DNA from: Paramacrobiotus metropolitanus
Taxonomy: Eukaryota > Tardigrada > Eutardigrada > Parachela > Macrobiotidae
Length of the DNA stretch: 64,000 bases
Direction of reading: 5' to 3'
NCBI RefSeq assembly: GCF_019649055.1
Contig: NW_026570246.1
Span: forward strand, 248,001 to 312,000
This document shows, piece after piece, positions 4,247-35,990 of this stretch. Below the pieces are notes generated by a model. That model worked only from the letters and a program-made list of their open reading frames with translations. It was not told the DNA's origin and ran no database searches. A program made the translations under genes and the position numbers. Every line of letters starts with the position of its first letter. The first letter of the stretch is position 1.

Positions 4247-4390
4247 GTAATTTTTATCTGACTTCTATTTTCTTGAGCAACAACCTGAAAAACCCGCTAA
4301 AACACTATCAATTTCTCTAAAAACCCTACAATCTCAGCTGAAAGAAAGCGAATACCACAACTTCTGGTTAAAGACAATACAAGGCGACAT

Positions 4391-9514: not shown

Positions 9515-9868
9515 TCACGAACTTGCAGACTCAACAAATAATCCCTTGAGATTCTTCCCATTAACCATGGCCAGCCCAATCAGACGGGGCTCCACGGCGT
9601 TGGCAGCGAAGTCGTGCTCGTTCTCGTATTCTTTGGCGCCACCCAGAATGATGTTCTGGTCGTGATCGGTGCACAAGAAGGTGCCCACGATTACACGGTC
9701 GTCCAGCAGAATCACTTTGAATTCACGGTTAAACAGATCCGCGATTTGCTGGCGTCCGGGTGTGGAGTATACGGGACCGGAAGATGAAGGAGATGCAAGA
9801 GTATTTTCGCTGTCTTGGGAGTATTCTCGCTCTTGAGGTTCCTGAGGCGGAACTCCCGTCTGATCCAT
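9515..9868 (-). CDS. NAA38: NatC auxiliary subunit, LSM-domain protein NAA38
   Basis: Small Sm-fold subunit of the NatC N-terminal acetyltransferase, which acetylates nascent proteins at the ribosome. The single exon encodes 117 residues; human NAA38 has 125. After a Ser/Gly/Pro-rich N-terminus come the Sm1 motif (FKVILLDDRVIVGTFLCTD followed by QNIILG) and the Sm2 motif (PRLIGLAMVNGKN). TFLCTDxDxNIILG and the LIGLAMV ending fit NAA38 better than the spliceosomal LSm proteins. The frame is open further upstream, but the first ATG is at 9866-9868. The stop lies 114 bp before the phosphorylase kinase start, so the two genes may be close tandem units or share transcription. Confidence 0.85.
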   Translation of the reverse strand: MDQTGVPPQEPQEREYSQDSENTLASPSSSGPVYSTPGRQQIADLFNREFKVILLDDRVIVGTFLCTDHDQNIILGGAKEYENEHDFAANAVEPRLIGLAMVNGKNLKGLFVESASS

Positions 9869-10104
9869 CAATTCCCAATTCACATGAAGCAAATGGCTGT
9901 ATCACAGAATGCTGCACTGTTGATCTGATCGATGCAAAATCAACGATCCTGCACAAAATCAGTTCTTACTTCCCAGTAATTTCCGATCAACGTTGAAGCT
10001 AGAACACGATTACAAGAATGTGCAAAATTTATGAAATAACAAAAAGTAGTCAAAAAGTGCAAAATGCCACTGCAGCACTTGTACGACTGTGTCGTTGTGA
10101 CAAA

Positions 10105-16169: not shown

Positions 16170-17591
16170 ATGAAAGAACACTTTGTGCGCATGCTTGCGC
16201 TTGTTGCGATTGTACTGTGTTTTTCGTGGACGCTTACGCCATCAGTTTTAGGTAAGAACAGAATAGTAGTAAGTACGTTAGTAATATTAAATATTGCTAT
16301 CGTTGCTCGCAAATTATGCACAGTATTGTTGAACGAACCATACGTTTTTTCTCTACGAGTAGAACTTTGTACCGTACACAACAGCCTCTCAAACGCTTAT
16401 TTTTCTTTAGCGAATGGAAACATCAATAACAGTGTTGACAACTTTTGGACAACATTCGCCCAACCGTACCAAAACGCTGTCAACATTCTAGCATATGAGA
16501 CACTAAAACCACTAGCGGATGCTCCGATACCCGTGGGATCTGCGGACGCCCACCAGCTGATCCACAACAGCAAAGCAAACTTACAACGCTTTTACAATAT
16601 TCTGGAGCCAATGCGCGCCGCATCGGAGGAATTACGTCAGCAGCAGGATCAACGTGTTACTAACAAAACCCTCGAGCTGCAATTGCTCGAAAACGATCTG
16701 CAGGATACAGAACAGAAAATCAACAATGCTACTACCGATCTCAACGAAAAGAAAAGGCTACTCACCGACGCTCAAACGCAATTAGCCCGAGAGATTTCCA
16801 GTCTAGAAGATGCCAATCGTCTGCTGCGATCCCGCGAGGACGCACTACACGACGCCAAAAACTGCATCTGGCGTTCGAAACGGTCATTGCGTGTACGGCG
16901 CTTTGGTGGTTTTCTCAAGAAAGTCGCCCACGGTGTTGGGCACGTTGCCAGTCAAGTGGGACATGGGGTGGGCCACGTGGCGCAGCAAGTAGGGCGGGGA
17001 ACGGAGCATGTGGTGCAACAGACTGGTCACGGACTGAACCATGTGGGCGGTCAGCTGGAAAAGGGTGGTACAAAATTAGTGGGCCACGTCCGAGATCTGG
17101 TGAATATCGGATGTCCGTTGTGGGCCGGCGTGAAATCAGCCCGTGCAGCCGTACGCAGCGCAGAGACCAACGTGGCCAATCAGCGGCAACGGGTCACCAA
17201 CGCGCAGGCCAATGTCAACAGCGTCCAAGCCACAGTCGACCAATTGCAGCAAATCAAGACGCAAAAAGAGCAACAAAAACAAATTCTGAACAATCATATT
17301 GCGGACATGCGGGTTACACTGGAGATGCTGAGCAGGATTAGCGTAAAAGTCAAGCAGGTGGTTCTGTATCTGGCCAGTTTATTTGATGTGGGACAGACTT
17401 TACAGAGCATCATCAGGAAAATGGTTGACATGGCAGAGTTGTTGGAACCGCTGCAGGAAATCAGCACGTTGGTGGGATCTTTTGGTGGTCAGAACACGAC
17501 AGCGCTCCTGCAAGCGACGGAGAGCACTCGGCAAAGCATGCTGGTGCTGAAGGACAAGCTGCCGCAGTATCCGCTGCTTGATGTCGCATAA
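16170..17591 (+). CDS. Secreted two-helix coiled-coil protein, family copy 1
   Basis: Two exons, 16170-16251 and 16411-17591, give 420 residues. Residues 1-27 are a signal peptide (LALVAIVLCF core). Then come a helical domain containing ETLKPLADAPIP, a long coiled coil (about 110-215), a basic RRFGG stretch, a Gly/His-rich amphipathic segment built on repeated GHGVGHV-like units (about 230-290), a second coiled coil, and a C-terminal helical domain ending KLPQYPLLD. The 159-nt intron is a multiple of three and has no stop, so its retention would insert 53 residues. Related copies lie at 20838-22561 (broken) and 34400-35990. The layout of two long helices around a Gly-rich membrane-compatible segment resembles membrane-acting helical proteins, but I infer only shape, not function. 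Confidence 0.75.
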   Translation: MKEHFVRMLALVAIVLCFSWTLTPSVLGKNRIVVSTLVILNIAIVARKLCTVLLNEPYVFSLRVELCTVHNSLSNAYFSLANGNINNSVDNFWTTFAQPYQNAVNILAYETLKPLADAPIPVGSADAHQLIHNSKANLQRFYNILEPMRAASEELRQQQDQRVTNKTLELQLLENDLQDTEQKINNATTDLNEKKRLLTDAQTQLAREISSLEDANRLLRSREDALHDAKNCIWRSKRSLRVRRFGGFLKKVAHGVGHVASQVGHGVGHVAQQVGRGTEHVVQQTGHGLNHVGGQLEKGGTKLVGHVRDLVNIGCPLWAGVKSARAAVRSAETNVANQRQRVTNAQANVNSVQATVDQLQQIKTQKEQQKQILNNHIADMRVTLEMLSRISVKVKQVVLYLASLFDVGQTLQSIIRKMVDMAELLEPLQEISTLVGSFGGQNTTALLQATESTRQSMLVLKDKLPQYPLLDVA

Positions 17592-18492
17592 TAGCGTTTT
17601 CTGTTGTTTTTATTGGTGTTGTTAACTCTGCCGTCTCTGCGTAAACACCACTATCTACGTACAGAGACAGTGGTTCCTCTTCTTAAAGAAGAACTTCGTT
17701 ATTGCATGCCGTAACAGTGCTTGCACAAAGACTACGTGCTACCGGTAACTCGTAAATCTGCTACTTGTGTTTTATATTAAAACCCTGTTCTTGAACTCTA
17801 CAAAGGTCACATTTTACAGCTTGCACAACTTGCACATTTTAGTGGCAGATCTACGTACAAAGTCATTGTTCATAAATTTGATGTGATTGTGTGTGTACTA
17901 TAACCAAAAAGGACTAGATGTGCAGCATATACAGAGCTGCGTATATAGATATGCTACGTAGTACGTACAATGTGATGTCATCTGTATATGCTACCGACAT
18001 ATGCGTATTATTATATGTGTTACGAAATACGAAAATTACAAGGCGGCAAACTAAATTAACTAACCGAATACGGCATTTCCTTTTTCAGTAACAGGCAGGG
18101 TTCCTCGCAGTCGCTAGCCACTGTCCTGTTTTTATGTACAATATTTCTATAGTATCTGTACATGACACTTGCATCGAATTCTGACGAACTGGCCAGGGAA
18201 AACTAGCTTCGTAGAAACTGTGACTGCTAATTTGTCACAAGTTAACAGGTAAATAATTTGGTGAACCATTATAGGTTGACCAAGATTATATTATTTTGTC
18301 AAGGAAACTTAAAAAATTTACGCTGACGTGGCCGGCATAATCTTAAGCTGACAAATGGTGGTACTCGTATAACAGCTTGTACAAATAGTACGAGTATATG
18401 ATTATATCCATCTCGATTTGCAGGCCGTCATGGGCTTGCAAATCCGGATGCAATCAAACCTCACTCTTGCATTAAATTATTATAGTAATTTT
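17592..18492. other. Intergenic region
   Basis: AT-rich, with scattered tacgtac and gtacaata motifs. No gene or RNA was recognised. Confidence 0.5.
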
Positions 18493-18696
18493 TTATACGC
18501 TGCCAATCACATCGAATGAAGTTGACCGAAAAGCATTCTGCTCCATTGCCTGTTTAAAGCGGAAACATGCCGGGCATGCAAGAAATTTACGGAAATTAAA
18601 CATGTAATTATAGTTTATACTTACTTTGTAGCACATGAAACCATTTTTTATGTCGCATCTTTGAATCGCTTTCGGCGGTACTAGGTAATATTTCAT
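18493..18696 (-). CDS. Possible small two-exon gene
   Basis: An ATG exon (18696-18625, 24 codons) ends at a perfect gtaagt donor and joins in phase an exon at 18549-18493 (19 codons with stop) after an acceptor. The result is a 42-residue peptide containing KYYLVPPKAIQRC and MEQNAFRS. The open frame also continues upstream of the ATG, so more exons are possible. There is no recognisable family, and it could be chance. Confidence 0.25.
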   Translation of the reverse strand: MKYYLVPPKAIQRCDIKNGFMCYKVSINYNYMFNFRKFLACPACFRFKQAMEQNAFRSTSFDVIGSV

Positions 18697-18808
18697 GATT
18701 TGGTGCTTTTCACAGACTGCCAATCACAATAGCAATCTGTGATTGCTAAAACGTCAAATATGAAAATTCTGTTTTTGTTAACAACACGATTTCAATCGGT
18801 GAAATACC

Positions 18809-19861
18809 ATGCAAAAAAATTTCAGAGTATGTGCAATATTTACCGTGCTTATGTCGGTTTCGCCAGCACAATCGGATTGGGATGCCCCTCAAAATTATCC
18901 TTCATGGTTTCTAATTCCGCAGCGCTTAGCGGGATATCCATTGTGTAAGTGCCAAATCACTCCTAGCGCTTTTTTTGTTGCAAATTCAATTTTGTTTGGA
19001 TCAGTTAATCGAAGACTATGTTATTTTGTGGTGGCAAAAAATTTGTGGCGAATCTTCGCTGCGAGTAGCTATTTTCGTACGTAATGCATAATGTTTTATA
19101 CAGTCGGCAAATAGCATTACACTGCACACTAGAGCCGCTTTGCTAATTACTTTGTTAGAAATGTGCGATAGAATTACCACAACAGTTACTCGTTAACTCG
19201 GGCACTTTTTATTCGTTAACTGTAGATTTGCCACAACAACCAATTTTTGCCGATTACTCCTCCAGCAGTTTAGTGGACACTTGGAATCAGTTTCGTAACG
19301 AATTCAGCGATATGGTAAGCCATTAACATAAATATCGTTTCTTACACAAATTTTCCTAATGAGCTGATACAAGCAAACCCTCAATATTGAGAAAGGCAAA
19401 CGTATTGTAGGTTTGCGTTTTTCAGTATTGTGAGGGTGGCAGGTCTGCCAGGTGAATTGTATTCACTAATTGTAGGTACTTGTAAGTCGTACAGATAGGT
19501 ATTTGTACTGCAATAATTATATATAGATATTTTTTTATTACTCTACAGAATCGTGTTCTGCATTGCTGTATAAGCACTTGTTTAGGTTGCATACGAAATG
19601 TTTTAGGTTCCCTATAATGACCCCGACAGTGATCCCTTCTACGACCATTTCGAAGAATATACAGCCGGCAAACGAACCTTTCCGCCTTCTGCAGCACCTG
19701 CAGCAGCTCGTCCAGCTCGCGAATTTGTGGATGCTCGTGGTGATAAGCGAAGAAAACCCGCGGCAGCGAAATCTATCGATCGCACTAAACCGCTCAGTGA
19801 AGAGTTGGTGGAAGTATTAATGAAGATCGCCACCGCAAACTCCAACCTTAACAGTTCCTGA
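18809..19861 (+). CDS. Small secreted precursor with dibasic sites, possible neuropeptide precursor
   Basis: Exons 18809-18944, 19226-19314 and 19607-19861 give 159 residues in one consistent frame. Residues 1-22 look like a signal peptide ending SPAQS. The rest has no cysteine and no membrane segment. An amidation-type GKR site (96-98) follows the acidic stretch DPFYDHFEEYTA, and a second basic cluster, DKRRK (121-125), precedes a helical C-terminal stretch with LSEELVEVLMKIA. Signal peptide, GKR and KRR sites, and small size are the usual marks of a neuropeptide or peptide-hormone precursor. I do not recognise either product. It could instead be a small secreted structural protein. Confidence 0.6.
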
Positions 19862-20837
19862 TCAACAAAGCACCACGCGTGCAGCAGTTCCAAATGATAA
19901 TAATTCCTGTTTTGGTATTGCGAATTGTTATTTTTGTGTAATGTATTATATCTATATTATTGCATCGCGATTATGAAAATCTGATCTTGATCATGATGGG
20001 CTGGTGATACTGGTGTGCTGGATTTACAGTTGTATGGACCTAGGCTCCTAGCTGCCGTTCGCAATCCTTAAAAGCAAAACCGGTTCCAGAAGTATCGTAA
20101 ATTTGCCAACCGATTAAAATAAGCATACTTATAAACATACTTAGCAAAAGATACGGAATCAAACACATGCGTGGTTCTCCTGGATGGTGCCATGCAACAC
20201 AAGCAATTTATGTAACTAACAAATGATCTATAGAAAATTATCAAAATAAACACTGCTCCGTAGCAGTATTCGTGATAGCAATGGTTCCGGTACGAGTATA
20301 TACGAGTAACTAGTCAATTTCACTGCTATACACACGTCATATGGATGGAAGATCAAGCGGAAGATATCGTGGGAACACTGAGAAGTTTTAGCCGTTTAGC
20401 CTAACTAGGGCAATGTTTGTGCGCATGCCGGGTCAGATTGTTTTCGGATTATTTCGTAGATTCGACGTTTAAATGGGATGGCTTCCAAATATTAACAGCC
20501 TTTTTGACGGGATTCAACCAAAAGTTTTCGCAGTGACCTCTTATCCTACTGAGTTGTCTGAAAATTAACAAACACAAAACAAGCAAAACAAACATCCGTA
20601 AACAAAACAGAACATAATAATAATAAGCAAAACATCCGTAGTAATTTGTAAACACATCGTGATAAAATGTGTGCGCAAATCGTCACTCCCGTCGATGAAA
20701 TTACCAGTGAGGTAATCTATATTAAAATAATTGACTTTAAGAAAGAGTTTTTTGTAGAATTATTAAGCGAATAAAAGTATGTACTTTCTCAGTACTGTAG
20801 AGTAGTTACGACTTCCGAGTATTTTATTTTTAGCTGA
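19862..20837. other. Intergenic region
   Basis: No gene was seen. Short A/C-rich repeats (aacaaaac, taataataag) occur near 20570-20640. A short ATG-containing stretch with a donor at about 20668-20711 may be a leftover of the following broken gene, but it carries no signal peptide. Confidence 0.4.
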
Positions 20838-22561
20838 TGACAACGACATCGAGGGATTTTGGTCGAGATTCGCAACGTCATACCAGAACGCAGTCCATAT
20901 TCTGTCTAACGATGCCCTCAAACCCCTCGCCGACGCCCAGATTCCTAACCAGTCAACGGAAGCACTGCAACTCCTGTCCAAAAGCAAACTCACTTCCAGC
21001 GGTTTTATGCAACACTTGAGCCAATGCGTACCGCTTCGGAAGAACTCAAACAGCAACAGGATCAACGGATCATCCGTGAGTCTCTTGAGCTGCAGCAACT
21101 GAAGAATGCAATGCAGGAGACCGACCGGCAAATTCCGCTGCCCCTACCGATCTCGACCAACGCATCCGCGCTTTTAAGGGGAAGTGGGCCGGTACATGGT
21201 ACCGATTTCGTATACATGCGCGAAAACTTACACTTTCGCGCACTCCCAAACACATTTTTGTTTCGGTTTATGACGTTTTGTAGCCAGAAGATTTGTATAC
21301 ACTGGCGTGAAAACCGTTTGTGCGCGCAACATCCGGTTCGGGAGTTATGGCTGTTACAAAATTCCAAAAAGTTTAAATGCGTTCAGGTGTACCAAAAGTC
21401 TCATTATGGACCGATCTCTCTCAAATTTTGCACGTAAATGCGCATGTCCATGAAGATCGTTTTTTAAAATTTTAAAATGAATTTTAAAATTTTTGAAATT
21501 CATTTTAAAATTTGAAAAACATGCTAGAACAGTGGATCGGTGTAAAAACGTTCTTCGTGGTTATGTGCATTTACGTGCAAATTTTGAGGGAGATCGGTCC
21601 ATAATGAGACTTTTGGTGCCCCTGAACGCATTTAAACTTTTTGGAATTTTGTAACAGCCATAACTCCCGAACCGGATGTTGCGCGCACAAACGGTTTTCA
21701 CGCCAGTGTATACAAATCTTCTGGCTACAAAACGTCATAAACCGAAACAAAAATGTGTTTGGGAGTGCACGAAAGTGTAAGTTTTCGTGCATGTATACGA
21801 ATTCGGTACCAGGTACCGACCCACTTCCCTTAACTGATGCACAGGTCAAGCTCGGTCAAGAGCGCACCAGCCTACACCATGCCCCCGTTAATCTGCAGTC
21901 TCAACAGCCGAAGGTCACTGCGCGAACGCCGTTTTCTAGATCCCCTATGGAAAGGCGTAGAGCATCTTGGTAGGGAAATCGGGAGAGGGACAGGAAACGT
22001 GGGGCGGGAAATAGAGCGGGGTGCGCAGAACGTCGTTAAGGACACCCTAAAGGTCATTAATGTGCCTTGTCACATTGGCCGATTGGCGGAGCGATAAATA
22101 ATGTCCGTGAAGCAGTCTGCAACGCCGAGAACAATGTGCGCCAGCAGGAACAACGTGTGGCTGAACGACAGTCAAAGGTCAACACCCAGAATACGGTCAA
22201 CCAACTGCGGCAGACAAAAGAAGGTTAGCAACAGTGGAAAGGGCGCCTTGTTCGTCAAATCGCAGATATACGGATGAAATTGCGTGCACTGGTGGAGATT
22301 GCAAAAGGTCAAGCAGATTGTGTTATATTTGTCCGGTCTGTTCGATGCAGGTGAGACATACGGAATGCCGTAAAAAAGGTGATCGACATTACTGAGTTGC
22401 TGGAGCCGCTGCAATATATTGCAGAGAAGACTATGTCGTTTAGCGATCGGGAAACAGCAGCGCTGCAGGCGGACACGAGAAGTTTACATCAAAGTATGGT
22501 CACCCTCAGCGCAAAACTACCAGAATATCCTTTACTTGAAAATGAAATTCACAGCAGCTAG
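20838..22561 (+). pseudogene. Broken paralogue of the secreted helical gene (copy 2)
   Basis: Several segments resemble the gene at 16170-17591 in the same order: the N-terminal helical domain with LKPLADAQIP, the EELKQQQDQR region, part of the Gly-rich middle, and the C-terminal ELLEPLQ and LPEYPLLE motifs. The reading frame carries several breaks, and a foldback transposon (21178-21829) sits in the first coiled-coil region. It is a decayed copy. Nucleotide similarity to copy 1 is still visible by eye, so the duplication is old but not ancient. Confidence 0.8.
21178..21829. mobile_element. TTAA-flanked foldback transposon (piggyBac-like MITE)
   Basis: Two arms of about 260 bases are near-perfect reverse complements: the left begins ggggaagtgggccggtac, and the right ends gtaccgacccacttccc. 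The centre is AT-rich and itself palindromic. The tetranucleotide ttaa abuts both ends (21174-21177 and 21830-21833), the target duplication made by piggyBac transposases. No transposase is encoded, so it is non-autonomous. The arms differ at only a few positions, which suggests a young insertion. It lies inside the broken helical gene. Confidence 0.85.
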
Positions 22562-22782
22562 TCGCTACTGTGCTGCTCTTATAGCGCTTGCAGGATTCAA
22601 TGTATGTGTTGCGAAAATTTTTTGTTTTCGTAATTTAATAACCTTGGAGTCAATGAACATTCCATAATTATAGTATAAGCATTTTTACTACGTTTTTGGT
22701 ATTTTTAAAATGGCATTATCTGCAAAATGTACAACATCTGTTTCTGATTTTCAAACATTTTCGTTGTTCCATATTCGTCATG

Positions 22783-25700
22783 TTAATCCACCGGTATAAT
22801 AAACTGACCAATTAGATTTAGTACTCCAAAGATTATTATTATTGCATGCAAGAACAAAGAGAGTTTTGTTAGATAACCGGCGGCACGAAGCATTGCCAAG
22901 TATACCAAACACGGGAAAGTATAGTTGTACGCAAATCCCGATATCGCTCCAACAATCCTGAGAATACAAAAAACGTTGACATTTGCACATTAACAATAAT
23001 GACGTGTACCCGGAGTCCGAAAACGCTGACCTTATTAGTGTTCCAACACGCGGCCAAAACATTGCTAACAGTATGCATATTGTTACAACGACGGCATTCA
23101 CAGCAATGATCCAGCCATATCTGCAATTTTACAATATTGTTAACAAACTTACCAGAAATAAAACCGTATACACTTACAGTATACACTTCTTATACTGTAA
23201 GTTTGCAGAACCAGCATGCAGTATCTTGTATGCACTGCTGTAAATTGTTTGTCGTACCTGTAGTCAATTTTCTTCAGAATTTTGACAAGGAACTGGTTTC
23301 GGAACATGTATAACATAAGTGGATAAACCGTGACCATTTGGAACAAAAGGAAAACGCTGGCAACAATCCCAAAAATATCGACTTTTGTGACTAAACGGAG
23401 GAAATTCTAAAACAGAATCTTAATTAAAACTGTTATATTCTGTAATATTATAATTGTAGATGATTGTATCTTAACATATAAATATCTATACTTTCCTAAC
23501 ATTAAAGTGGTTACAAACTACGAGTACGAAGTATATCAAAATGGCTGTCATATTCGACCATTTTGTTTCAGATAAGCCCGAAAAATTGTGTTGTATAACT
23601 TGCATCGGGGATTTCATCCTTTCGCTCCGGATATGTAATATAGAAAATAATGCCAATGGATAAGTAAGTTAGTGCGACGAGCAGATAGGCCAATCCCAGA
23701 TCACGCTTTTTATTCTGCGGTTTCTCATGATGTTGTGTAATGGGGAGAATACCGTTATGTATGAAAAATCCCATAGACAGCGATCCAGTAATGGCCGGAA
23801 ACTTGGTGTTAAACCCTTGGAATACAATAATTACATTGCGCATAGTACAGATATGATATAACTATATAGTCCTTGATTTATCATTTAAAATAAAGCACTT
23901 TACATTACCACACGATGCAAAGAATTTTCTAGTCCCATTTCCTAAGAAGTGTAGCATTAAGCACTTTGTTTTTCATGTTTTTAACATAACATTCAGCTAA
24001 ATTTATCGAAAGGCAACGTAGTAAGGATTGATAACTGCGATATTTGTAAGCTGTCATAATACAGCTGAGCGATGATTTTGTAAAAAATTTTTGCATAAAA
24101 ATATATCTTTACATGCGACCTCTAAAGAGTCGAGGAAAGAGACAAGATTAACTGACCTCTAATGGAATCATCCACGCCGGAATCCATATTAATTCCCCAT
24201 ATCACAGCTCGGTATATCACATAGGCCAGCAGGACAAATACGGAGCAAACGCCGAGAGCGTTGAATTTGGTGAATACTGTCGGTTCCCGCATGCAGGACA
24301 GCGGAAGGAGAATTGCCGCCAAATACACCGGCACAGTGTACTGTGCTGACCAAAAGTCTTTGAAGGACTTCACCGCTGCGCTGACGTTGAGCGCCTCGAA
24401 ATCAATCGGTGCTTCTAATTTTGACCTCGCATCCGCTTCCGTGGAATTAGTATCCCACGCATAATCTACGTAGCATAATTAAACAGATAAAATGTGAAAT
24501 GCATAGTACCGCATAACACCTTACGATATATGACATTCCCCACGTTAAACAGGAACCTGGACATAAATATCCAATATGCTATTAACGCTCCCAGGAATGT
24601 CAGCAGCGAGATCACTACACCGCATAAGGCCAAACGCCGGCCCAGGTAATACTCTATCGCATCCCCGAAATCAAAGAACGCCGGACGCATGACCTTCTCT
24701 GCGTCGTTTGCATCCTTCTGTCTTTCGGCAGACGACAGTACCAGACTGCAGGTATAATAGGAAAGACATCCAAGGAAAATTGTTAGAAATATGCCCAGTA
24801 TAAAACCGGCCTAAAAACAACAGACAGTTTTGATCGGTTGCTGATGAAAAATAATCACCATAAAAATTGTTACTGTAGCATACTGCAATATTTTATTTAC
24901 ATATACGTGTGCATCTGTGTAACTGCTTTAGATCTGTAGTTGAACATCTTTTAGGCATAGAGCATGCGCGGTTCAAATAATTCACAAAAATATAAGAATA
25001 CACTGCAGTTACGAACTTGCGCAATGGCCCATGGCATGATTAACAAAGTCGCGCCCATCATTGTATTCCATATTGCAAATCTGCAAGTGCAAAAATGTTT
25101 ACCAACACTTGTTTAACTTCCAAAAATTTATGACTACTGTAATTAATTTGACAGTTGACATATACTGCGCAACCCACAGAAAACATCCTGCTGGTACAAT
25201 TTAAGAATTTTAGGTGCAATAAAGTTATAAAAAATATTGAAGAGTAAAATCGTAAGCACAATTTCGCAGTTTTAATATGGTCAACAGTTGTAGCGCTTCA
25301 GTGCTGCACGCTCATGACACTTTCATCCTTTGTTTTATCGTTATACTTTTGTTAGGTAATACTGCTCTAAATTTGCTTACACCGGCAGCGGTAAATTACT
25401 GTATATTATTGTCAAAGCCGGTACTACAAGATTATTTGCATGACCGCGTGCCGTGGTCATTTTTTGTTGTTAAACTGGCATTTAATTAGACTTATAATTA
25501 ATAATGCTGACATAGTGACCAAGCTTCCTTGCTTCCGGATAGCCGGTTCCGGGCTGATCGGCTTGCTCAGCTCGATGTGCGCATCAGCGGATTCGAAGAG
25601 TTTTGGCACATTTGTTGTTAATTTGGCTGCGAGGGTCTTCCTTATAGCATCTTCCTGGTCCGCTTCTAACTGGGTCTCTGGCTCCGGAGTGTGCAGTGCC

Positions 25701-26325
25701 GTCGGATCGGCACTCGGGAGATCGGTCGACTCAGTCGATGCGCGTGATACCGAGCGTGAAAGGCTTAGGTGCAACGCTTCAGTGGGCGCTGTAATGGAGC
25801 CGCTGATCGTTGGTATCACTTCCGGCGCTGACCGGTCTAAATGGCAAATTCAGTCATTCACACTTTAAATCACAAAGTAGCAAAGGATATTCACTAAATA
25901 TGTTTAGATGTCAAAAGGCATTTTTGGAGTCCTTTTTTATTCAACTTTATAAATTGCCGCCAGCAAAACAGTTCGTATAGTATGCATCTCGCAAAAAGGA
26001 GTTTTTGACCGGAAACACTAGTCCGCTCCTCTAGATCGTAACTGCAAGGCAATAAAGAATCGCTACCGCTTTACTAACGAAATTCTGAATTATAGCCTAT
26101 GTCTTGATGCATACAATACTACGAACTGCATAAATACTTAATGCTGCATTTTAATTAGCTGAGAAAACGTACGCTGATATTGGTAAATTCATATAGCATA
26201 TTGCTTTACATTACACAAATAAATTCAGACGTTACAGTAATATTAAATTAAAGTGCACTAAATGCTGGTATTTACATGACCGGAAGTGGTCAGTTGCACG
26301 TACCTTCGTGATCTCTTCTGGACAT
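22783..26325 (-). CDS. SLC38A9: Lysosomal amino acid transporter SLC38A9
   Basis: Eleven-helix transporter that acts as an arginine sensor for mTORC1 at the lysosome. Nine exons in transcript order: 26325-26304, 25836-25512, 25080-25017, 24810-24525, 24465-24157, 23815-23604, 23406-23258, 23120-23031 and 22957-22783. They sum to 1632 nt, or 543 residues; human has 561. A Ser/Thr-rich cytosolic N-terminus leads into SLVTIFAIWNTMMGATLL, the signature of this branch, then AYWIFMSRFLFNVG, TGSLSMGFFIHN, RDLGLAYLLVALTYL and FQMVTVYPLM, all matching SLC38A9 rather than SLC38A1-8. A luminal loop carries NST, a glycosylation site. The intron starting at 23603 uses a GC donor (GCAAGT), the only choice that keeps phase. 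The first exon is short (MSRRDHE) and was chosen on donor phase. Confidence 0.93.
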
Positions 26326-29042
26326 AATTTGTTTACAATTGTAAATTGTGATTACTGAAGACGCAAACACGGATGCTGTAATCCAGGGACAACGATCAAG
26401 AGAAAGATACTTGTGCCGGGATCAAGAAGGTAAGTGCAGCATATAAATTATACGTTACAGTGACCAGCAGAACTACTACTTTTCGTGGTTATGTTCTGAC
26501 ATAAGATGCAAGGCCTGTCGGGTTGTTTTATGCAATAATTTCCAGTCAGGGAAGAAAGGCACAGAATAAATATACCTATACAATCTTTACATTAGGAGGC
26601 GGTATTGGCAAACCATCCCGGTTTTTTCGCTCTGATCACCGCTTTTTTGGATAAAGCACCACGGCATCAGTACAGTGTTCTGCTGACCCGGATATTACTA
26701 ACCGTATACACATCAATCCATAGGCGACAAATCATTTCCTATCATTTTGTGCTCATCAACATTACGTTACGTTAAACTGCTAACGTTGATGGCAGAAAAA
26801 ATGCACAAGGGATTTGTTTTGATAAATGTGCTTGCTGATCAGGCGACGAGAAGTGCAGTCTGATGACCTTCAATCAAAGCATTCTTGATACCTTAAGTGA
26901 GGACTTATAATCATGTAACTAACCCTTAAAGTCTTTTATAGGATCTTCTCTAAGATTGCAAATTTGCTGTTTCGTACAGGAAATGACGGCTTTTCTGGCT
27001 CTTGATGATGATCCGGTTTCGCAACAGTTGCTGCTGCTACATAACCCACGTGGAGAAAAAAGCGCTCAACTGCAATTAAAGATTTGCCATTGCCGACTCA
27101 TCGTCCTACCGCGAATACTATGCAGTACATAAGTATAGTTCTGTACGGCTACGTCGAAGCATCGTTTTTAAGTGTGGATTCTACTACATAGTTTAAAAGT
27201 ATCGTTTACAGACTCCCTGTATACCGTACTTGTATTAGTTGTATATACCTGTACTGTAACTAAAATACTAATTAATTATCAGATCGTTTGCATTACTAAT
27301 TTACCGGCAAAAGTACGTAGGGGTACTAGGGGATTACCGGTCTCGAACCTCCTGCAGAAACTCTACAAACTCCATCATTCGCTGCCAATCTGTTAGTTAA
27401 TTCGATAGCTTAGGTTGTGGAGATTTAGATGACCTTATGATTTGAATTTCGATGTAGCTTGTCTCACTTCGTGCCCACTGTGGATCAATTCGAAGCAAAC
27501 CTAAACAAACACACCAACAATACATCGTAGTTAAATTATTAAAAACAGAAATCAAATAATTATTTTCTGTAGAACAATAATTATCAATAATTAGTAATTA
27601 TTTTCTGCAACGTGCATTCAAACTGTTCGCGAACTGTTATACATATCGGTAGGAACTAATGAGCTGCACAGAGTTTGCAGCTCATCTTCCTAGCAATTTA
27701 TGATTGGCTTGTATAGATAATAGAAATATAGCCCAAAACACACTTACGTTTCTTAAAAACCGAAGTCCATTCAACCTTTTACTATTTTTAAAACACGGCA
27801 AATCCGCGAAAGCAGCTTTGAAATTTTTGTGCACATACGATATCAACGTCCTCCGTTCAGATTACTACGGCCGTTCATGATCAGAAAAAAGTACTAGGGG
27901 ATTTGAATTCACATTTACATCGGACTAGCAATTCTGATGGTAAAAAAATCAGAAATCGCAACAGCAAGATTGTACTACGTTTTAGCGGCGATAGATATTT
28001 CTGCTTTGTATCTATTATGTACTAGTAATAGCATTAGTTAATACTCTTTCAGATCGTACGTACGCAATTAAAAAGTAGAGTGATTAATATTTTATCATAA
28101 TAATAGTAAACAACTCCAGTTTATGTGTTTATTAAAGCGTGCTTTAGTCCAGAACATAAAAAGATTGAACTTATAACTTAAAAAAATAAAAAATACGTGA
28201 AAGCCTATAACTTCAAAAAGCGATGCTGTTGTAGATACTGTATGCTGTACTCGTATTTAAATGACATGGCTTCGTTACTCGTACAACACTTAAAATTTAC
28301 GGCACTTAAAATTTAAAATTTAACTAATTTATTATTGCAAAGTTTTTAGTTATTTTCTCTGTGCATTGTTATTTTGTCGGTACACTTATAAATTAGTATC
28401 GTAGACTGTAACGGTAAAATTTAATTTTAAACGCGAGCTCGCTTCACTCGCTTGTTTGAATAGGAACAGGCTCCGCTGAGTCAGCTGTGCCGCTTGCTGC
28501 GGCTTATAGTGCAGCCCGTTCGTGCGTGCATATGCCGTAAGCGTGCAGCAGTGCCTGCATGGGCAAAGCTGTAATGTTATTGATTGGCCCTATTTAAAGC
28601 ATATGATCAGTTTCCGTGGGACTTTGGACCTTGAACTTGGGAATATTATTGGCTTTGGCGTGCACTTGCTTGTAATAATCATTTCTTTGAATTATTCCGC
28701 CATTTTCGCTGCCAAGTTTTATCGGCTATTGTACTAGATATTCTGAGCCTTAAGCCAGTCATTCCACCTGCCTGCCATCCACGCGCGTACTTCTGCTGTG
28801 CGTGGTTTGTGGATCCTACAGTTTCCATCCGATCTAGTTCCACCGTGTTCATCCCGATGCGCACTGCCGAACAGTGTTCAAGATCTTGAGTGCGGCATTT
28901 GGTATCACTCGTCGATTCCATCGGCACGACAGGCTGATTCCCGTTTTCACGCGTTTTCGAAGCGTGACTGCAAATCTCAGATATCTTGGAGGTGTTTGAT
29001 ATTTGGATTTGCTGATCGATGCTTGCATCCCTAACGGAAATA
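26326..29042. other. Long intergenic region
   Basis: This is 2.7 kb of AT-rich DNA. A plus-strand segment at about 26350-26430 stays open and ends in a good gtaagt donor but has no ATG; it may be an untranslated exon of a transcript divergent from SLC38A9. A sequence near 27345 resembles a tRNA B box on the minus strand, but no cloverleaf forms. No gene was recognised. Confidence 0.45.
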
Positions 29043-32000
29043 ATGCCGTCGCCTTATCTGTGGTCGGGCATTCCCGCTGCCATGTATTATGCCTATTATT
29101 ATAAAACCTACTGTGGTCAGGTGAGTGGATAGTGCAGTTTGTCGGAAGTGGTATTTTTTGCATTTTGATCTCCCTTCCGGTACATTAGTCGAGCCACAGA
29201 AGCACGTGTTTGGGATTACGCATTCATTAGGAATATCATGATTTAAACTGGCTAAACTTGTGCGTACTGCGTAGCAATATCATATTTATGCATTATTTTC
29301 AGTTTGATAAAAAAACTTCTAACTCAGGAAACTTTTAATCCCGATGCCCGTGCATAATATGAAACTTCAAGAAATACGATACATTATGCCATTTCAGAAT
29401 TGCCTTCAGGTTTCTGTGAAAAGCTTTCATTAGGACCTAGACGAAGTGTATTTGCATACTGAAATAGGTTGCGATGCATGGAATTATTTGCAAACCTGTG
29501 AATCCGAAATTACCCCAGTAATTGCACCATTGCGTTATGAATTTGTGAAATTAAACGTGCATTTAACTTTTAACAAAACTATAAACCTAGACATTGGTGG
29601 AGTGATAGCAATAATGATAACGTATAAAAACCGTTGGTGATGATTTAGATTTTGGCAGTTTTTGTGCGTTATAAATGCGTTTAGCGTGAATTGGTAAAAT
29701 GATCCGAAAGAGTCTCAAGAAATGTGTAGTTGACATTGGTTAATTATATTTATAGTTTTATACGTAAGGTACGACGGTGTTTCGATGCTTTTTTTAAAAA
29801 TTTATAGGTGTCAGATTTAATCGCACACTTTTATAGGTGCCAGAGATTTACGGGGCCGACGGAGCATTTCTACGGCTGATGAAAGAGAAATGTCCAGCTC
29901 TGCACGAAGAATATCGCCCACCGCCTCTCGTGCATGAATCTCGTTTAATGACGATCTTCGCCTCAATTGGACGTCATCGCGGACTGAATTTTCCTTATAT
30001 GCGGTACGCTGGTCAAATATTTGTTGTGTGTTTGTGTATGGAAACATTTTTCTCTTTTCTGTCTGTAGTGAGCTGTTTATAACATCGGATGGCGGGGAAA
30101 TTGCGCTGGACTGGTGGGACGCCCGTCTGAAGCCCAAATCCCCATCGGAAGTTCCCGTTGTCTCCTCCACGTCGTTGGTGGATTCCCTGAGCTATTATTT
30201 TCGTTTTCCCAGCCTTCAGATTCCGTATTTTGGATCTGCCGCATCCACATCGGCACCTGACACCTCTGGCGACATCAGCGACGCCAGTATCCCCACCGGA
30301 AGCACCGAAGCGCGAAAACTTAGTGGTAGGCTTTCAATACAAATGTTTATTTGCCGGCAGGGTTTTAAAATCATAATAGTACATGTAAACACATTTCCGG
30401 GGAATGTTTGGATGTTTTGTCGGCCAGACTGACGCTTATATTGATTTGTCACGCTCTGAGCCCTGAATTTACGACCTTGCAGTCGGAGACGCTCCCAGCA
30501 GTGTGCCCGAACTGGATGATCTCGTACCAACCCATGTTCATTTACCCAAATCCGTCTCTAACATTACCGCTGATCCAGCGGATGTAGATGTGTCAGTGGC
30601 AGTGGAACATCCGGAGAAATTAGTTCCCATTGCGGAGAAAAATGCCGATGGGGCCGATCAGAGCGCGGTGGGCCGCAGTGATGTCTATGTGCCGGAACCG
30701 ACGGGATTAGTGCTTATTTTGCCCGGTTTAACCGGAAATAGTGGGCAGAATTATGTGCGGGGATTGGTGCAAGTGGTGGAGGAATTGGGATTCACGTAAG
30801 TTGATGCCGCATTTTCTTATAATTAGACACATTGCATGATATTTTTATTGAACATCGGAAATGATGGCCATTTATGCTTTTGCTGCTTGAAAATGGCGCT
30901 GCAAATTGGCTCAGCTGCAGAGTGTAGGCTGTGTGATCGGGGTTGTTCAGGAAACTAAAATTAATTATTTTGTTACATGTTGGTTTTCTGTGCTTTCTGC
31001 CTTTTTTGTGTTTGTTTATTGAGCTGTATTGGTTGTTGATATTTAGTCTGTCATAATTTGCGAACTTTGCGTTTTACAGAGCGATCGTTATGAATTACCG
31101 TGGAATGGCAGGCGATTTAAAGGTGAGGAACTGTCCCAGTGCGTGATATTTTGCAACCCACTAATCAAGAGAGTTAAATTCGCAGACTCCGAAGTCTTAT
31201 TGCGCGGTTGACACCACGGACATTGCAGAAGTGATACAACTTCTGAAGCGTCGTTATCCCACCGTCCCAGTTATGGCTGTCGGCATCTCATTGGGCGGGT
31301 ATGCCAAGAATTTTCGACGGTTGAATTCCGGTACAAGTTACAGTATTAACTTTAATATGGTTCATGTTCTGTAGGATTTTGCTGTGCCAGTATTTGGCGT
31401 ATTGCGGAAAGAACAATATTGACAGTCTGTTAGTGGGCGTTATGGCTGTGTCGGTTGGATGGAATATCTTTGAATCCTGTAAAACTTTGGAACAGCCTTT
31501 GAACTGGCTGCTGTTTAATCGTATGCTGACACGATCATTATGTGCTGCAGTGCATAGGTACAATATGTTCTGTTTGATTAGCGTATTGTGCTATTTGATT
31601 GAAGGATACGACAATTTGAGCAAATTATTAGTAACTTTATCGCTACAACATTACCTTATTTTCCGATCATGTTTGTTTTGTGGATGCTTAGGATATTTGA
31701 CAATTACTAGCATTGCAAACATTTGATCTATAAGATGCATGCTGGTAACTGAAGTTGATGAATTTTTTTATTTTTCAGGCACAGCAATATGTTAAAGAAC
31801 AACTATGACCTGGAGGGGCTAAAAAATGTGCGGACTATACGGGAATTTGACAGTCATATAACATCCAAGATGTTCGGCTTTTCGGATGTGGATGAATACT
31901 ACAAGAATGCCTCATTGTACGACAAGATTCAGTTCATCAAGACGCCTTTACTGGCGCTGAATGCTGCTGATGATGTATTTTCCCCGAATGACGGTATGCG

Positions 32001-33630
32001 TGAGACTGTAATCATTACCGCTGATTTTGAATAAAACTGTGATGATAAATTGTTTGATGCATGCATAAGAAAAAAGCTAAGCTAAGAAAAAGCAAAAAAG
32101 CTAACAGCTTTTTTGGTTGAACAGAGAGGTGAGTTTTGTAACTAGGATGATACACCTCGTTCACGCCAAGTTGGCGGTGTGTCATTTTAATTTTCTGCCG
32201 AATCGTGCAGCGCATGTTTTGCCAATGTTTTTAAAGGTTATAGCGTAGTTTTCTTTTGCGCATTTATTGAGCAAAAACGTAATGGATTTTCGGTTGCGGT
32301 GCCGCGAGAAGCGCCTTCCGAAGTGAAGGCACCGATGAAACAAGTCATGGCAGTGAAAAAACACAATTTAATTCTGCCAGAAATGCAGGAACGACTTTAG
32401 GCGCTTGGAATTGAGGTCAGTTTCAAGAACCCCAAGAGAGAGCTTCAGGAAAAAAAACTAAAAGTCAACTGCTAGACCAAACCTGCAAACCGCCTAGGGG
32501 AGCAAAATCGTTTTTTCGCCAAAATAAAGCGCTCGTTGAAAAAAGGGATGGTGTTCACTGAAAAGTGTTCCAACGGAGGGACGCGCGCTTATGCTCAGGA
32601 TAGTAGTAAAAATTTTAACGCCCAACTCCTTGCGAATCGTATTTTATGTTGCACGTTGAAGGAGGAGTTCCCATGGTTGCATGGTGACCTCGCGGAGAAT
32701 ATCGTCCTACAGTTCGGCCACGCCCACCGTTATACCGGTGCCCTGCCCCAGGAACGGCTTCAAATTAATGGTGCGAAGTGCACCCCGAAGGGCCAATGCA
32801 TGGCCAAGTCAGCAGATTTAGCGCCCTTGGACTACGGCATAAACGGGAATTTAAAACCAATTTTATGTGGGAGAGACGAAACCGCGATAGCTTAACTGCA
32901 GCGCATTTTTGAAGTGGTCTACTCTAGTTTTAAAATTCCTGTAATTCACATATAGCTCAAATCTTAAAAACCTTAATTGCAAATGGTGTTGGATAGATTC
33001 AGTAATCACGTTAAAGTTAAACAAAGTTAAATTTGTTGACTAGTGGTTCAGGGTAATTTTGTAAATGGACACCGCCAACTTGGCGTGAACGGGGTGTATA
33101 TGCATATCTTACCTAGCATTTGTGGTAGGTGTGTAAATACACAAATGCCTGCATTTATCGCCAGTTGGAAAGTTTTAAATCTGCATTCCACAAAACTCTC
33201 TCTTTTTTTCTGGTGATATAGTTTTTTAAAAGCCGCTGTTATGGACTACGAAACTCTGCCCACGAACGCAGTGTAAAATTTGTTTACTTAATTTAGAATA
33301 ATGATTGTACGTTTTGATTTTTGAGCTTATTAGAATTTTTGTGTGTTTGATTTAGCCATTCCTCGTGAAGAGGCGAAGAAAAATCCCAACATGTGCTTGG
33401 TGGTGACATCCCACGGTGGACACATTGGATTCCTGGAGCAGAGAAATCCCTTTGGACGTAACTACGTCGAGCGACTGTTTGAGCAGTTTGCCCGCGCCGT
33501 CTTTGAGAACCGTGACATACTGCCGGTGCCGGTGCGCATCATCACTCCTCACGAAGAAGTTCCTGTTAACACTGCCGAAATCCCTTTAGTTCCTGACGTC
33601 GATACTCAAACGGCGCCATCGCTGGATTGA
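29043..33630 (+). CDS. ABHD3: Alpha/beta hydrolase, ABHD1/ABHD3 type
   Basis: Membrane-associated serine hydrolase; ABHD3 is known as a phospholipase on medium-chain and oxidised phosphatidylcholines. Nine exons fit: 29043-29120, 29837-30003, 30069-30325, 30483-30795, 31080-31122, 31186-31298, 31375-31557, 31779-31993 and 33356-33630. They total 1644 nt, or 547 residues, against about 410 in human. Seen are DGGEIALDWWD, LPGLTGNSG (oxyanion region), the nucleophile elbow GISLGG (S321), NWLLFN, the acid region LNAADDVFSP (about 445-454), and SHGGHIGF with the catalytic histidine (H479). The excess length is a low-complexity, Ser/Pro/Asp-rich insertion (about 105-245) between DWWD and the hydrolase core. 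Introns are mostly under 700 bp; the last, 1362 bp, is enlarged by a mariner-like element. Confidence 0.92.
32153..33096. mobile_element. Tc1/mariner-superfamily element, decayed
   Basis: Terminal inverted repeats of about 30 bp (cacctcgttcacgccaagtt at the left; the complementary sequence ending gaacggggtg at the right) are flanked by TA on both sides, the target of this superfamily. The plus-strand interior keeps traces of a transposase: a run ending in SADLAPLDYGINGNLK, comparable with the WPxxSPDLNPxD block of mariner enzymes, and an upstream ENIVLQFGHAHR where LQQDxAxxH is expected, so the second catalytic Asp appears lost. Stops interrupt the first half. At 944 bp it is shorter than a full mariner (about 1.3 kb). 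It lies in the last ABHD3 intron. Confidence 0.85.
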
Positions 33631-34399
33631 TTACAAAGATCGTTGTGGATCTTGTCTCGCTTCATCTTGTTATATAGTCATTGTTTCTTCGTGATTAGCA
33701 AAGCCATACTGTTATGGGTATTCTGATATTGCAAGCCTGGTGATTATTCTTCATGAAAAAACTTATTAAGCTTCATAGCGGCGAACGCTGAACGCGATGG
33801 TGTTCTATCGTTGCTGTTAGTGTCGGCTTTATGGCACTGCTTTTCTTTTATATTTTGCAGTATTTCAGTTCTTATTTCATTGTCGATTTTTGGAATACGA
33901 TTGTATACACTTTTGGATCGCTGCAATTTGAAAGTCGAACAAAACTGAATAACAATAATTCAAATAAAAATAAAAGTCATGGAGTGACAGTATGGAAGTT
34001 GCTAAGCATGCATGCTTGCAACAGAAGCTACAGATAGTGTTTATGTACAGATTGTCTGGTCACTGCAGGCTAGAACAGTCAAAGGTAGATCAAAACAACC
34101 AAATATATTCCACAATCCACAGTAGTTGTGTTACGTAACACAGGCAAGCTGCGCATAGAAAGCGTAAATAGTCGTAATGTCCGGAGTGGGCTAGAATGGC
34201 GCACGGTGACCTTATGCACGTACACTTGCGTAATCAATATTAACATCGTCTGACAAAATGCCAAATTTCTTTTATACACAAACTCATACAAAATGCATGA
34301 AATCCTAATATCAGGCGTAGTGGCTAAAGGAGAGGCATCTTTTCGAACAGTCTGAAATTATCTAATAACTTAATTCAAGTTTATCTTGCAGCGGAAGTA
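33631..34399. other. Intergenic region
   Basis: 3' flank of the hydrolase and upstream region of the next secreted gene. No gene was seen. Confidence 0.5.
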
Positions 34400-35990
34400 A
34401 TGCACTTTCGCGGTACTTCGTATTCTATAGAAGTAGAGAATGTTCTATTCTGCTTAATTTTGTTGCTTCCCGTCGCAGGTAAAGTACAGTGCAACTGTGC
34501 AATCATTATTACACGGAGCTACCAAGCAGCGCTCGCACCTGCCATAACATTGTTACGAGTACAGTAATTTTTCTGCATACATTTACAATTAGCTGACAAC
34601 ATTATAGCAAGCACTGCAAAGCAAGCAAAGTTGAAAATTACTTCTCCGTAAATAGTGAATTTGTAAAACTTAAGCAATAATAATTTTTCTCGTATAGTCT
34701 TTCTCTTATGGCTTATAACCTTTTCCTACTATGTACTGTGCAAATATTTCAACTTTGACTAACAAGTTTATGCTAGAGAAGCCATGCATTTTAGGCGCTA
34801 CACGCCACGCAGTGTTTACTCTGAATTCTGAAACAAAGTATTCTCATAAAACTAGCAACGAAAAAAAATTAGCAACGACACCAAATCGTTAAAAAAATAA
34901 AAGCAACGAAAAAAATCGTTTATATATATTTCCAAATATTATAGATATGCATTATTATATGTATTTGCGTGCAAATTTTCCTTCTTACCGTTAGAACAAT
35001 TTTGTATAAACACTATAGAGTGCATTATCTCTGCGTGTTGTTTTCACAGATTAAACAACTTATTAACATCTGCGCTAATATTTGCGACCTTTGTTAATAG
35101 CAGCACTAGTGGACGATGTTACCGACGCAAACGTCGACTTCCGGACGTCGAAGCATTTCCTTCGAATTTATGCAAAGGCGGTACATGTGTTGGCGTATAA
35201 AACGTTGAAACCACTGGCCGATGCTCCAGTACCTTCAGAAGGGCGGCAGACTATTCGGTTACTGCCCAACACCAGACGCCATCTCCAATGTTTTTACAAT
35301 ATTCTCAAGCCGCTCCTCACGGCGACCGAAGAATTGCGGCTTCGGCAGGAGGCTACGATTATAAATAAAACTTTACAACTACAATCGTTGGAAGAAGAGT
35401 TCGTAGAAATGGAAAACTACATCAGCTATAGTACTAATCGAGTGGATGCAACGCTCGAGAAGGAAGACGCCGGTAGTTACCGTAAACGAAACAAAACCAA
35501 CGGAATTCGAGAAAATGCGCAGTTTATAGAAAATTTACAAATTCCTATACGTCAAAAGATGCAAGATCTGCGAATCGAAATGGCGGCGCTTAGTGCAAGT
35601 AATATACAAGTCAAAGGAATTATCCTGCATTTATCCAGTCTCTTCAGCGTGACAACGACACTGGATAACATTATGCAGAACACGGTCGACATAGCAGAAT
35701 TGTTAGCACCGTTGCACCAGATTGCCGATCTGGTTGCATCGTTTGCTAGACACCATATCGGGTCACTTCCTGCAGTATACGCACGAAGTATCACAAAGAG
35801 CATGAAAGTCCTGGATCACAAACTACCGCATTATCCGCTACTGGATTTGGAATATCGAAGGTTGATTCCGTGCCGCGCGCACAGGCATAGCAAAACACAA
35901 CGTTCCAAACTGCGAAATACGAGTATACTACCGGCGATCAATGTGAACGTTACTAATTTTACTTCTCGTACTGCACCGGATCAGCAATAA
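34400..35990 (+). CDS. Secreted helical protein, family copy 3 (short form)
   Basis: Exon 1 (34400-34478) encodes a signal peptide (VLFCLILLLPVA core) and ends in phase 1, the same phase as the first intron of copy 1. Exon 2 (35101-35990) completes 322 residues. The N-terminal domain (LAYKTLKPLADAPVP, FYNILKPL, NKTLQLQSLE) and the C-terminal domain (HLSSLFSV, VDIAELLAPL, LDHKLPHYPLLD) match the gene at 16170-17591. The Gly/His-rich middle and most of the second coiled coil are absent. A basic C-terminal tail of about 50 residues is unique to this copy. The frame is intact, so it may be a functional divergent member. Function unknown. Confidence 0.75.

What the first reader, a model, noticed from the sequence alone, without database searches (positions are those of the whole stretch)
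16170..35990. A local family of secreted two-helix proteins, with a gain or loss of the Gly/His-rich middle
Three related loci (16170-17591, 20838-22561, 34400-35990) share an N-terminal LKPLADAPxP domain and a C-terminal ELLxPL...KLPxYPLLD domain. The two intact copies share a signal-peptide exon ending in a phase-1 intron. Only copy 1, and partly copy 2, has the Gly/His-rich segment flanked by coiled coils. Copy 3 lacks it and has its own basic tail. I know no described family with this layout. A secreted helix-Gly-rich-helix protein could form a bundle that inserts into membranes or binds lipid; this is inference from shape only.
Basis: partly seen in the sequence, partly recalled or inferred. 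Interest (0 to 1): 0.75.

Follow-up and report, generated by a model that had tools for sequence, protein, structure and literature searches.

The report
Paired secreted helical-hairpin protein family
In what is probably a water-bear genome, a family of secreted helical-hairpin proteins with a lipid-binding-type tip recurs head-to-head with a second helical protein, which hints at an untested two-part membrane-acting system.

Summary
Copies 1 and 3 align in two blocks (E 2e-22, 6e-18); both have a signal-peptide exon ending in phase 1. Copy 2 is a broken relative carrying a 652-bp palindromic element between TTAA motifs. The family is not only local: the genome (169.8 Mb; statistics resemble the tardigrade Paramacrobiotus sp. 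TYO) holds at least 14 loci on four contigs.

New: (1) the 'Gly/His-rich middle' is an array of 11-residue amphipathic repeats, the pattern by which perilipins bind lipid, mostly set behind a cysteine and a furin-like basic site and closed by another cysteine. (2) AlphaFold gives two helices of over 100 residues joined at this tip. (3) A neighbouring minus-strand gene (13868-15623) belongs to a second family; 6 of its 6 loci found sit head-to-head with a copy-1 relative.

Best reading: a secreted two-component membrane-active system shaped like ClyA-type pore-formers. The fold link is only suggestive: MakA is the best global structural match of 50 shown, but a cleaner sequence profile gives E 0.17. 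A non-lytic lipid-binding role is a serious rival.

The parts
16170..16251 (+). copy 1 (c1), signal-peptide exon, phase 1
   Evidence: sequence; junction
16411..17591 (+). copy 1, exon 2: two conserved ends, two coiled coils, tip loop
16863..17114 (+). copy 1 tip loop from first to second cysteine: furin-like sites RSKR and RVRR, then 11-residue amphipathic repeats (limits approximate)
13868..14486 (-). partner gene n, last exon
   Evidence: 80% identical to the C93 copy
14988..15623 (-). partner gene n, preceding exon with hydrophobic segment; the earlier exons present in the C93 copy are missing from this window
20834..22546 (+). copy 2, broken relative (stops, frame changes, insertion)
21178..21829 (.). 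palindromic TTAA-flanked repeat element inside copy 2, with many copies in the genome
34400..34478 (+). copy 3 (c3), signal-peptide exon, phase 1
   Evidence: junction
35101..35990 (+). copy 3, exon 2: conserved ends without the tip loop, with a basic tail

Best explanation
A secreted two-component membrane-active system. The c proteins (copies 1-3 and relatives) form a helical hairpin: conserved ends that pack near the base, a coiled-coil stalk, and a tip loop, in most copies bracketed by two cysteines. The loop holds a furin-like basic site followed by an amphipathic helix of 13-16 residues in most paralogues, expanded into several 11-residue repeats in copy 1 and its C93 relative. Proposed working: the loop is cut after secretion, the amphipathic helix stays tethered by a disulfide, lies down in a target membrane, and the c protein assembles there with the n protein, a helical protein of over 600 residues with hydrophobic segments that is encoded head-to-head with it; the outcome is a pore or other membrane disruption, as with ClyA-type alpha-pore-formers, probably for defence or predation. 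Shown: family, layout, signal peptides, repeat, linkage, low dN/dS. Inferred: cleavage, disulfide, assembly with n, pore formation, biological role. Copy 3, without the loop, would be a non-inserting variant.
For: Six of six n loci found lie divergently beside a c gene, although n is only 24-28% identical between the two groups. A [RK]x[RK]R motif 3-4 residues after the first loop-cysteine position in 7 of 9 c rows. Amphipathic moment above shuffles at p<0.02 in 6 of 7 loops; 11-residue period in copy 1, C93 and copy 2. Signal-peptide exons in copies 1 and 3, and a hydrophobic first exon for C93 c and C93 n. AlphaFold hairpin, pLDDT 75. MakA has the best global TM of 50 rows shown (0.49/0.57, rmsd 6.9), against at most 0.38 in 50 rows of a viral-protein background. 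An early profile put MakA first (E 1.6e-4). dN/dS 0.15-0.30 in six unsaturated exon comparisons.
Against: Foldseek E-values rank dynein stalks and other coiled coils above MakA (rank 32), and two of those have TM 0.45-0.46. With spliced rows MakA falls to E 0.17 and generic coiled coils lead at 6e-4. n has no PDB match better than 0.08, its window exon gave a poor model, and n and c do not match each other. The c loop is not strongly hydrophobic. Loop features vary: 352 lost the first cysteine and its moment is p 0.11, 379 lacks a basic site in the loop, copy 3 lacks the loop. In the window itself n lacks its first exons. No expression, cleavage or activity data.
Confidence: 0.42

Rival explanations
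1. A secreted lipid- or membrane-binding protein that does not lyse: the 11-residue repeats coat or protect membranes or lipid particles, as perilipin-type or stress-protection repeats do, with n as a binding partner or carrier.
For: 11-residue amphipathic periodicity; weakly hydrophobic loop; weak resemblance of the loop to the Senescence domain, E 6e-4, below its cut-off; the probable host dries out and revives (general knowledge).
Against: Most paralogues keep only 13-16 residues there; a basic site right after a cysteine suggests processing; a paired second gene is not needed for coating.
Confidence: 0.25
2. A structural extracellular coiled-coil protein (cuticle, egg shell or gland secretion) with a variable spacer; the likeness to pore-formers is generic coiled-coil likeness.
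For: Top Foldseek and profile hits are generic coiled coils; low conservation; 5 of 14 loci broken or partial.
Against: Conserved ends outside the coils, the basic site beside a cysteine, the amphipathic tip and the conserved head-to-head partner are not expected of a spacer.
Confidence: 0.2
3. A precursor of a cationic amphipathic antimicrobial peptide: cleavage at the basic site frees the loop peptide, and the helical rest is a carrier.
For: Basic site followed by a short amphipathic segment, net charge +1 to +5 in 6 of 7 loops; a very weak Clavanin match for the copy 1 loop, E 0.28.
Against: No second basic site that would free the far end was identified; the second cysteine would keep the peptide attached; one loop has net charge -1; the conserved ends and the n partner stay unexplained.
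Confidence: 0.12

Closest known systems
ClyA-type alpha-pore-forming proteins, especially MakA and the two-component XaxAB/YaxAB
   Same: Long helical hairpin with a special segment between the two long helices, a base formed by the remaining helices, multi-component systems with linked genes (model; review PMC6162564, part 1 of 3 read)
   Different: No strongly hydrophobic head in c; cysteine-bracketed loop with a basic site and 11-residue repeats; animal genes with signal peptides in a head-to-head order; no stable sequence homology
Perilipin-type 11-residue amphipathic repeats
   Same: 11-residue period and helix angle near 99 degrees (perilipin papers seen as listing and abstract starts only)
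   Different: Secreted, short, inside a loop at the tip of a hairpin; no Pfam match over cut-off
Apolipoprotein L (secreted channel-forming proteins of vertebrates)
   Same: Secreted helical, membrane-active proteins (listing and abstract starts only)
   Different: No apolipoprotein L model among the Pfam rows shown for copies 1 and 3; different layout

Membership tests
ClyA-type alpha-pore-forming proteins | Five-helix bundle base with two long helices carrying the membrane-active segment between them | tested here: inconclusive
   The model has two helices over 100 residues plus four shorter ones near the ends, but bundle packing was not measured; MakA best TM of 50 shown, E 0.035
ClyA-type alpha-pore-forming proteins | Hydrophobic head or tongue between the long helices | tested here: not met
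   In c the loop is amphipathic and weakly hydrophobic; n has a hydrophobic segment after a long predicted helix, but its fold is unknown
ClyA-type alpha-pore-forming proteins | Sequence relationship to a known member | tested here: inconclusive
   MakA E 1.6e-4 with profile A1, 0.17 with A4; reversed control best 0.076
ClyA-type alpha-pore-forming proteins | Oligomeric pore in membranes | not testable with these tools
   needs a laboratory assay
Two-component XaxAB/YaxAB-type systems | Two linked genes with related folds acting together | tested here: inconclusive
   Linkage 6 of 6 n loci; no profile similarity between n and c; joint action not testable here
Apolipoprotein L | Match to the Pfam apolipoprotein L model | tested here: not met
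   Not among the 25 of 29 rows shown for copy 1, nor for copy 3
Perilipin-type 11-residue repeat proteins | Significant 11-residue amphipathic periodicity | tested here: met
   Copy 1, C93 relative and copy 2; not examined for the 13-16-residue loops, absent in copy 3
Perilipin-type 11-residue repeat proteins | Cytosolic lipid-droplet protein | tested here: not met
   Signal-peptide exons in copies 1 and 3

The most novel reading that the evidence does not exclude
An animal-encoded, secreted two-component pore-former activated by a furin-like protease: cleavage inside a disulfide-closed tip frees a tethered amphipathic helix, whose length evolves by gain and loss of 11-residue repeats, and a head-to-head second gene supplies the partner subunit.
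Probability: 0.22. Interest if true: 0.85.

Novelty: new variant of a known kind. Interest (0 to 1): 0.55.

Why it matters
If right, an animal, probably a tardigrade, has its own binary membrane-attacking system with an activation mechanism (cleaved, disulfide-tethered tip) that I do not recall for bacterial ClyA-type proteins; the rows listed by the searches show no such paper. It would be a testable effector of tardigrade defence or predation. If the non-lytic rival is right, it is an extracellular carrier of perilipin-type repeats in an animal known for surviving drying. Either way the pairing with n makes a concrete prediction: the two proteins act together.

Tried and rejected
Rejected or led nowhere. 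(1) Firm homology of c to MakA by sequence: it depended on the alignment, with a reversed control at 0.076; the alignment behind one search had single-exon rows with visibly misplaced ends. (2) Fold of n from its last window exon: pLDDT 60.5, hits such as arfaptin at E 0.08 or worse. (3) Similarity of n to c: none. (4) Relatives elsewhere: copy 3 in viral contigs, 24 pattern matches, none confirmed; n in GTDB contigs, 41 pattern matches, none confirmed. Copy 1 and the other c proteins were not searched for in GTDB contigs. (5) SseC-like Pfam resemblance of copy 1 (E 2e-4, below cut-off): taken as generic, not pursued. (6) DNA tandem repeat in the loop: none by TRF; the repeat is at protein level. 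(7) Rfam and tRNA scans of the window: nothing. (8) Lipocalin-family searches meant to help fix the species: few matches (one and four), the one read not specific.

Early calls with a wrong frame for copy 1 (5, 7, 8, 9) and for relatives (29) were redone; copy 1 results are not used.
Full report
OBSERVATION. The three loci are real relatives. Copy 1 exon 2 (393 aa as read) and copy 3 exon 2 (303 aa as read) align in two blocks, 47% over 93 residues (E 2.4e-22) and 42% over 101 columns (E 5.8e-18), in a search of 1332 open stretches of at least 30 aa in the window; six pieces of copy 2 match copy 1 at E 2e-14 to 2e-4. Copies 1 and 3 have a signal-peptide exon ending in phase 1 (16170-16251 and 34400-34478). 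The C93 relative shows the same arrangement in the sequence printed: a hydrophobic first exon, a phase-1 donor, and an acceptor just before the shared domain. Copy 2 has no such exon that I could see, its pieces lie in different frames with stops between, and it carries a palindromic element with 286-nt arms between TTAA motifs at 21174-21177 and 21830-21833 (read). A genome search with one arm listed 49 matches, with 40 of 2306 candidates scored, so this is a common repeat element.

GENOME. The window lies at G000:C26:248001-312000 of a 169,799,020-base, 533-contig assembly. Its first contig is 4,484,719 bases. Paramacrobiotus sp. TYO is reported with 170,483,395 bases, 684 scaffolds, a longest scaffold of 4,484,941 and 43.46% GC (PMC8277472, passages seen). 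The likeness makes that tardigrade the probable source; it is not proof, and the numbers are not identical.

FAMILY SIZE. Searches with copy 1, copy 3 and two C109 exons give at least 14 c loci: three in the window, one on C93, nine on C109 (near 332, 342, 349, 352, 361, 370, 372, 379 and 389 kb) and one on C247. Nine have open frames in every exon seen (window copies 1 and 3, C93, C109 332, 349, 352, 370, 379, 389). Five are broken or partial (window copy 2, C109 342, 361 and 372, C247). First exons of the C109 genes were not all identified. The tool says such counts are lower bounds.

THE PARTNER. The gene on the minus strand beside copy 1 (exons near 13868-14486 and 14988-15623) belongs to a second family, n. 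Its last exon has six matches in the genome at E<=0.1: itself, C93 (80% identical) and four on C109 (24-28%); a search with a C109 n exon found the same six loci. Each of the six lies divergently beside a c gene: window n(-)/c1(+); C93 c 263.1-264.2 kb(-)/n(+) with matches to early exons at 266.8-267.5 kb and the last exon at 269.8 kb; C109 n 326-328(-)/c 332(+), n 344-346(-)/c 349(+), c 379-380(-)/n 382-384(+), c 389(-)/n 392-394(+). The window and C93 pairs form one group, the C109 pairs another, and n is about a quarter identical between groups, so linkage and orientation are old; within a group the pairs may have been copied as blocks, so six is not a count of independent events. The six paired c genes are open in every exon seen; of the eight others three are (the chance of six intact by lot is 84/3003 = 0.028, hand arithmetic that ignores relatedness). 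The window n lacks the earlier exons that C93 n has: C93 exon sequence found no counterpart to them in the window, nor did a C109 first exon. The C109:326-328 n is also broken. So four of six n loci are open in all exons seen. dN/dS is 0.15, 0.30, 0.24, 0.16, 0.15 and 0.29 in the six unsaturated whole-exon comparisons; copy 1 against C93 and against copy 3 are saturated at synonymous sites, pN/pS 0.42 and 0.49; three short open pieces of copy 2 against C93 gave 0.05, 0.07 and 0.27.

ANATOMY OF c. Nine c rows, six of them spliced from two exons, show two conserved ends, two coiled coils and a tip loop; the N-terminal exon of the C109 genes was left out of these rows. In seven of nine rows a [RK]x[RK]R motif starts three or four residues after the first loop-cysteine position (copy 1 with two sites, C93, 332, 349, 370, 389, 352); 379 has one nine residues before its cysteine, and copy 3 has none; in four rows further matches to the motif lie outside or later in the loop. 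The first cysteine is lost in 352, and copy 3 lacks both loop cysteines. Seven loops were tested for amphipathic moment against 2000 shuffles each: six give p<0.02, and 352 gives 0.11; 379 and copy 3 have no comparable segment and were not tested. In five of these loops the segment has 13-16 residues. In copy 1, C93 and copy 2 the loop is an 11-residue repeat: lag-11 similarity exceeds all 5000 shuffles in each, and 5000 of 5000 (copy 1, C93) or all but 0.0002 (copy 2) when the best of all lags is taken; the best helix angles are 99, 99.5 and 98.5 degrees. Eleven residues in three turns is the pattern of perilipin repeats (papers seen as listing and abstract starts). In copy 1 a histidine recurs at one place in four of six 11-residue rows, which could make binding pH-dependent (inference). 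The 'gain or loss of the middle' is therefore a change in repeat number: by eye about five in copy 1, four in C93, three in copy 2, one in most C109 copies, none in copy 3.

STRUCTURE. AlphaFold on copy 1 exon 2 alone gave mean pLDDT 75.1 and pTM 0.57, with helices 5-37, 45-159, 166-194, 196-209, 222-325, 331-339, 342-356 and 363-386; the two ends and parts of the loop (162-164, 195-223) are below 50. Copy 3 was not folded. Foldseek against the PDB ranked dynein stalks and other coiled coils first by E-value. The best TM of the 50 rows shown (of 470) was MakA 7p3r at rank 32, E 0.035, 0.49 by query and 0.57 by target, rmsd 6.9; PrgA and a dynein chain reached 0.46 and 0.45 by query with rmsd 37.6 and 19.9; AhlB and SmhB pores appeared at 0.23-0.35. 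Against predicted viral proteins, used as background, the best TM by query among 50 shown (of 434) was 0.38 and no rmsd was below 21. By sequence, a first profile gave MakA E 1.6e-4 to 2e-4 in three entries that are one protein, ahead of a coiled coil at 0.003, with XaxA at 0.6; with spliced rows MakA was 0.17 and portal protein and dynein led at 6e-4 to 8e-4; the reversed control peaked at 0.076. The fold link is suggestive, not established. n profiles found no PDB match better than 0.08, n and c do not match each other, and the model of the window's last n exon was poor.

MECHANISM. The reading that explains most is a secreted two-component membrane-active system: c carries an amphipathic tip on a coiled-coil stalk, unlocked by a convertase and held by a disulfide, and n, with hydrophobic segments near its start and after a long helical stretch, is the second subunit. 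In the ClyA family the membrane-active part lies between the two long helices as well (PMC6162564, part 1 of 3 read), and in MakA hydrophobic residues are shielded in the soluble form (PMC8824476, passages). Everything from cleavage onward is inference. A non-lytic lipid-binding role is the strongest rival because 11-residue repeats lie on lipid without lysis and the loop is weakly hydrophobic.

KNOWN OR NEW. No Pfam or NCBIfam family passes its cut-off among the rows shown for the four window exons tested (25 of 29 rows shown for copy 1 in each), nor in Pfam for ten exons of relatives. Paper searches for tardigrade pore-formers (no paper), for XaxAB/MakA-type proteins with eukaryote terms (20 listed of 10,243), for ClyA with animal terms (12 listed of 61) and for tardigrade immunity terms (one paper) listed no paper on such a family by title or abstract start; these searches are narrow. 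I recall, from no call, that uncharacterised proteins resembling the n layout exist in other animals; a lead only. Because a hydrophobic head was tested and not met in c, it is not filed as a ClyA member; 'works like one' is kept as the hypothesis.

Noticed in passing
L016:6671-7471 (-), i.e. C109:324671-325471: An interferon-inducible-type GTPase gene (Pfam IIGP, E 3.6e-61) lies within about 1 kb of the first n copy of the C109 cluster; such GTPases are immune genes in vertebrates (general knowledge).
   Followed up: partly
C109:334-339 kb and 373-377 kb (L017, L018, L021): Open frames that look by eye like retrotransposon reverse transcriptase and integrase pieces lie inside the C109 cluster; they may have helped copy or break the pairs. 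Not tested with a library.
   Followed up: no
window 21178-21829: Palindromic TTAA-flanked element, GGGAAGTGGG-type ends, at least 40 scored places of 2306 candidates in the genome; a further copy lies beside the C93 pair.
   Followed up: partly
window 18810-19860 (+): A possible small secreted multi-exon gene between copies 1 and 2, with a hydrophobic start and a basic KRRK stretch near its end (read).
   Followed up: no
window 4300-7389 (-), 9518-9901 (-), 36768-37415 (-), 48689-49165 (+), 58340-58909 (+): Ordinary genes by Pfam: phosphorylase b kinase subunit, LSM protein, ubiquitin-conjugating enzyme, Ras-family GTPase, CTLH-domain protein.
   Followed up: partly
window 53220-54244 (-): Two neighbouring open frames share a repeated coiled-coil segment beginning LLKENFRKEE; no Pfam match for the one tested.
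   Followed up: no
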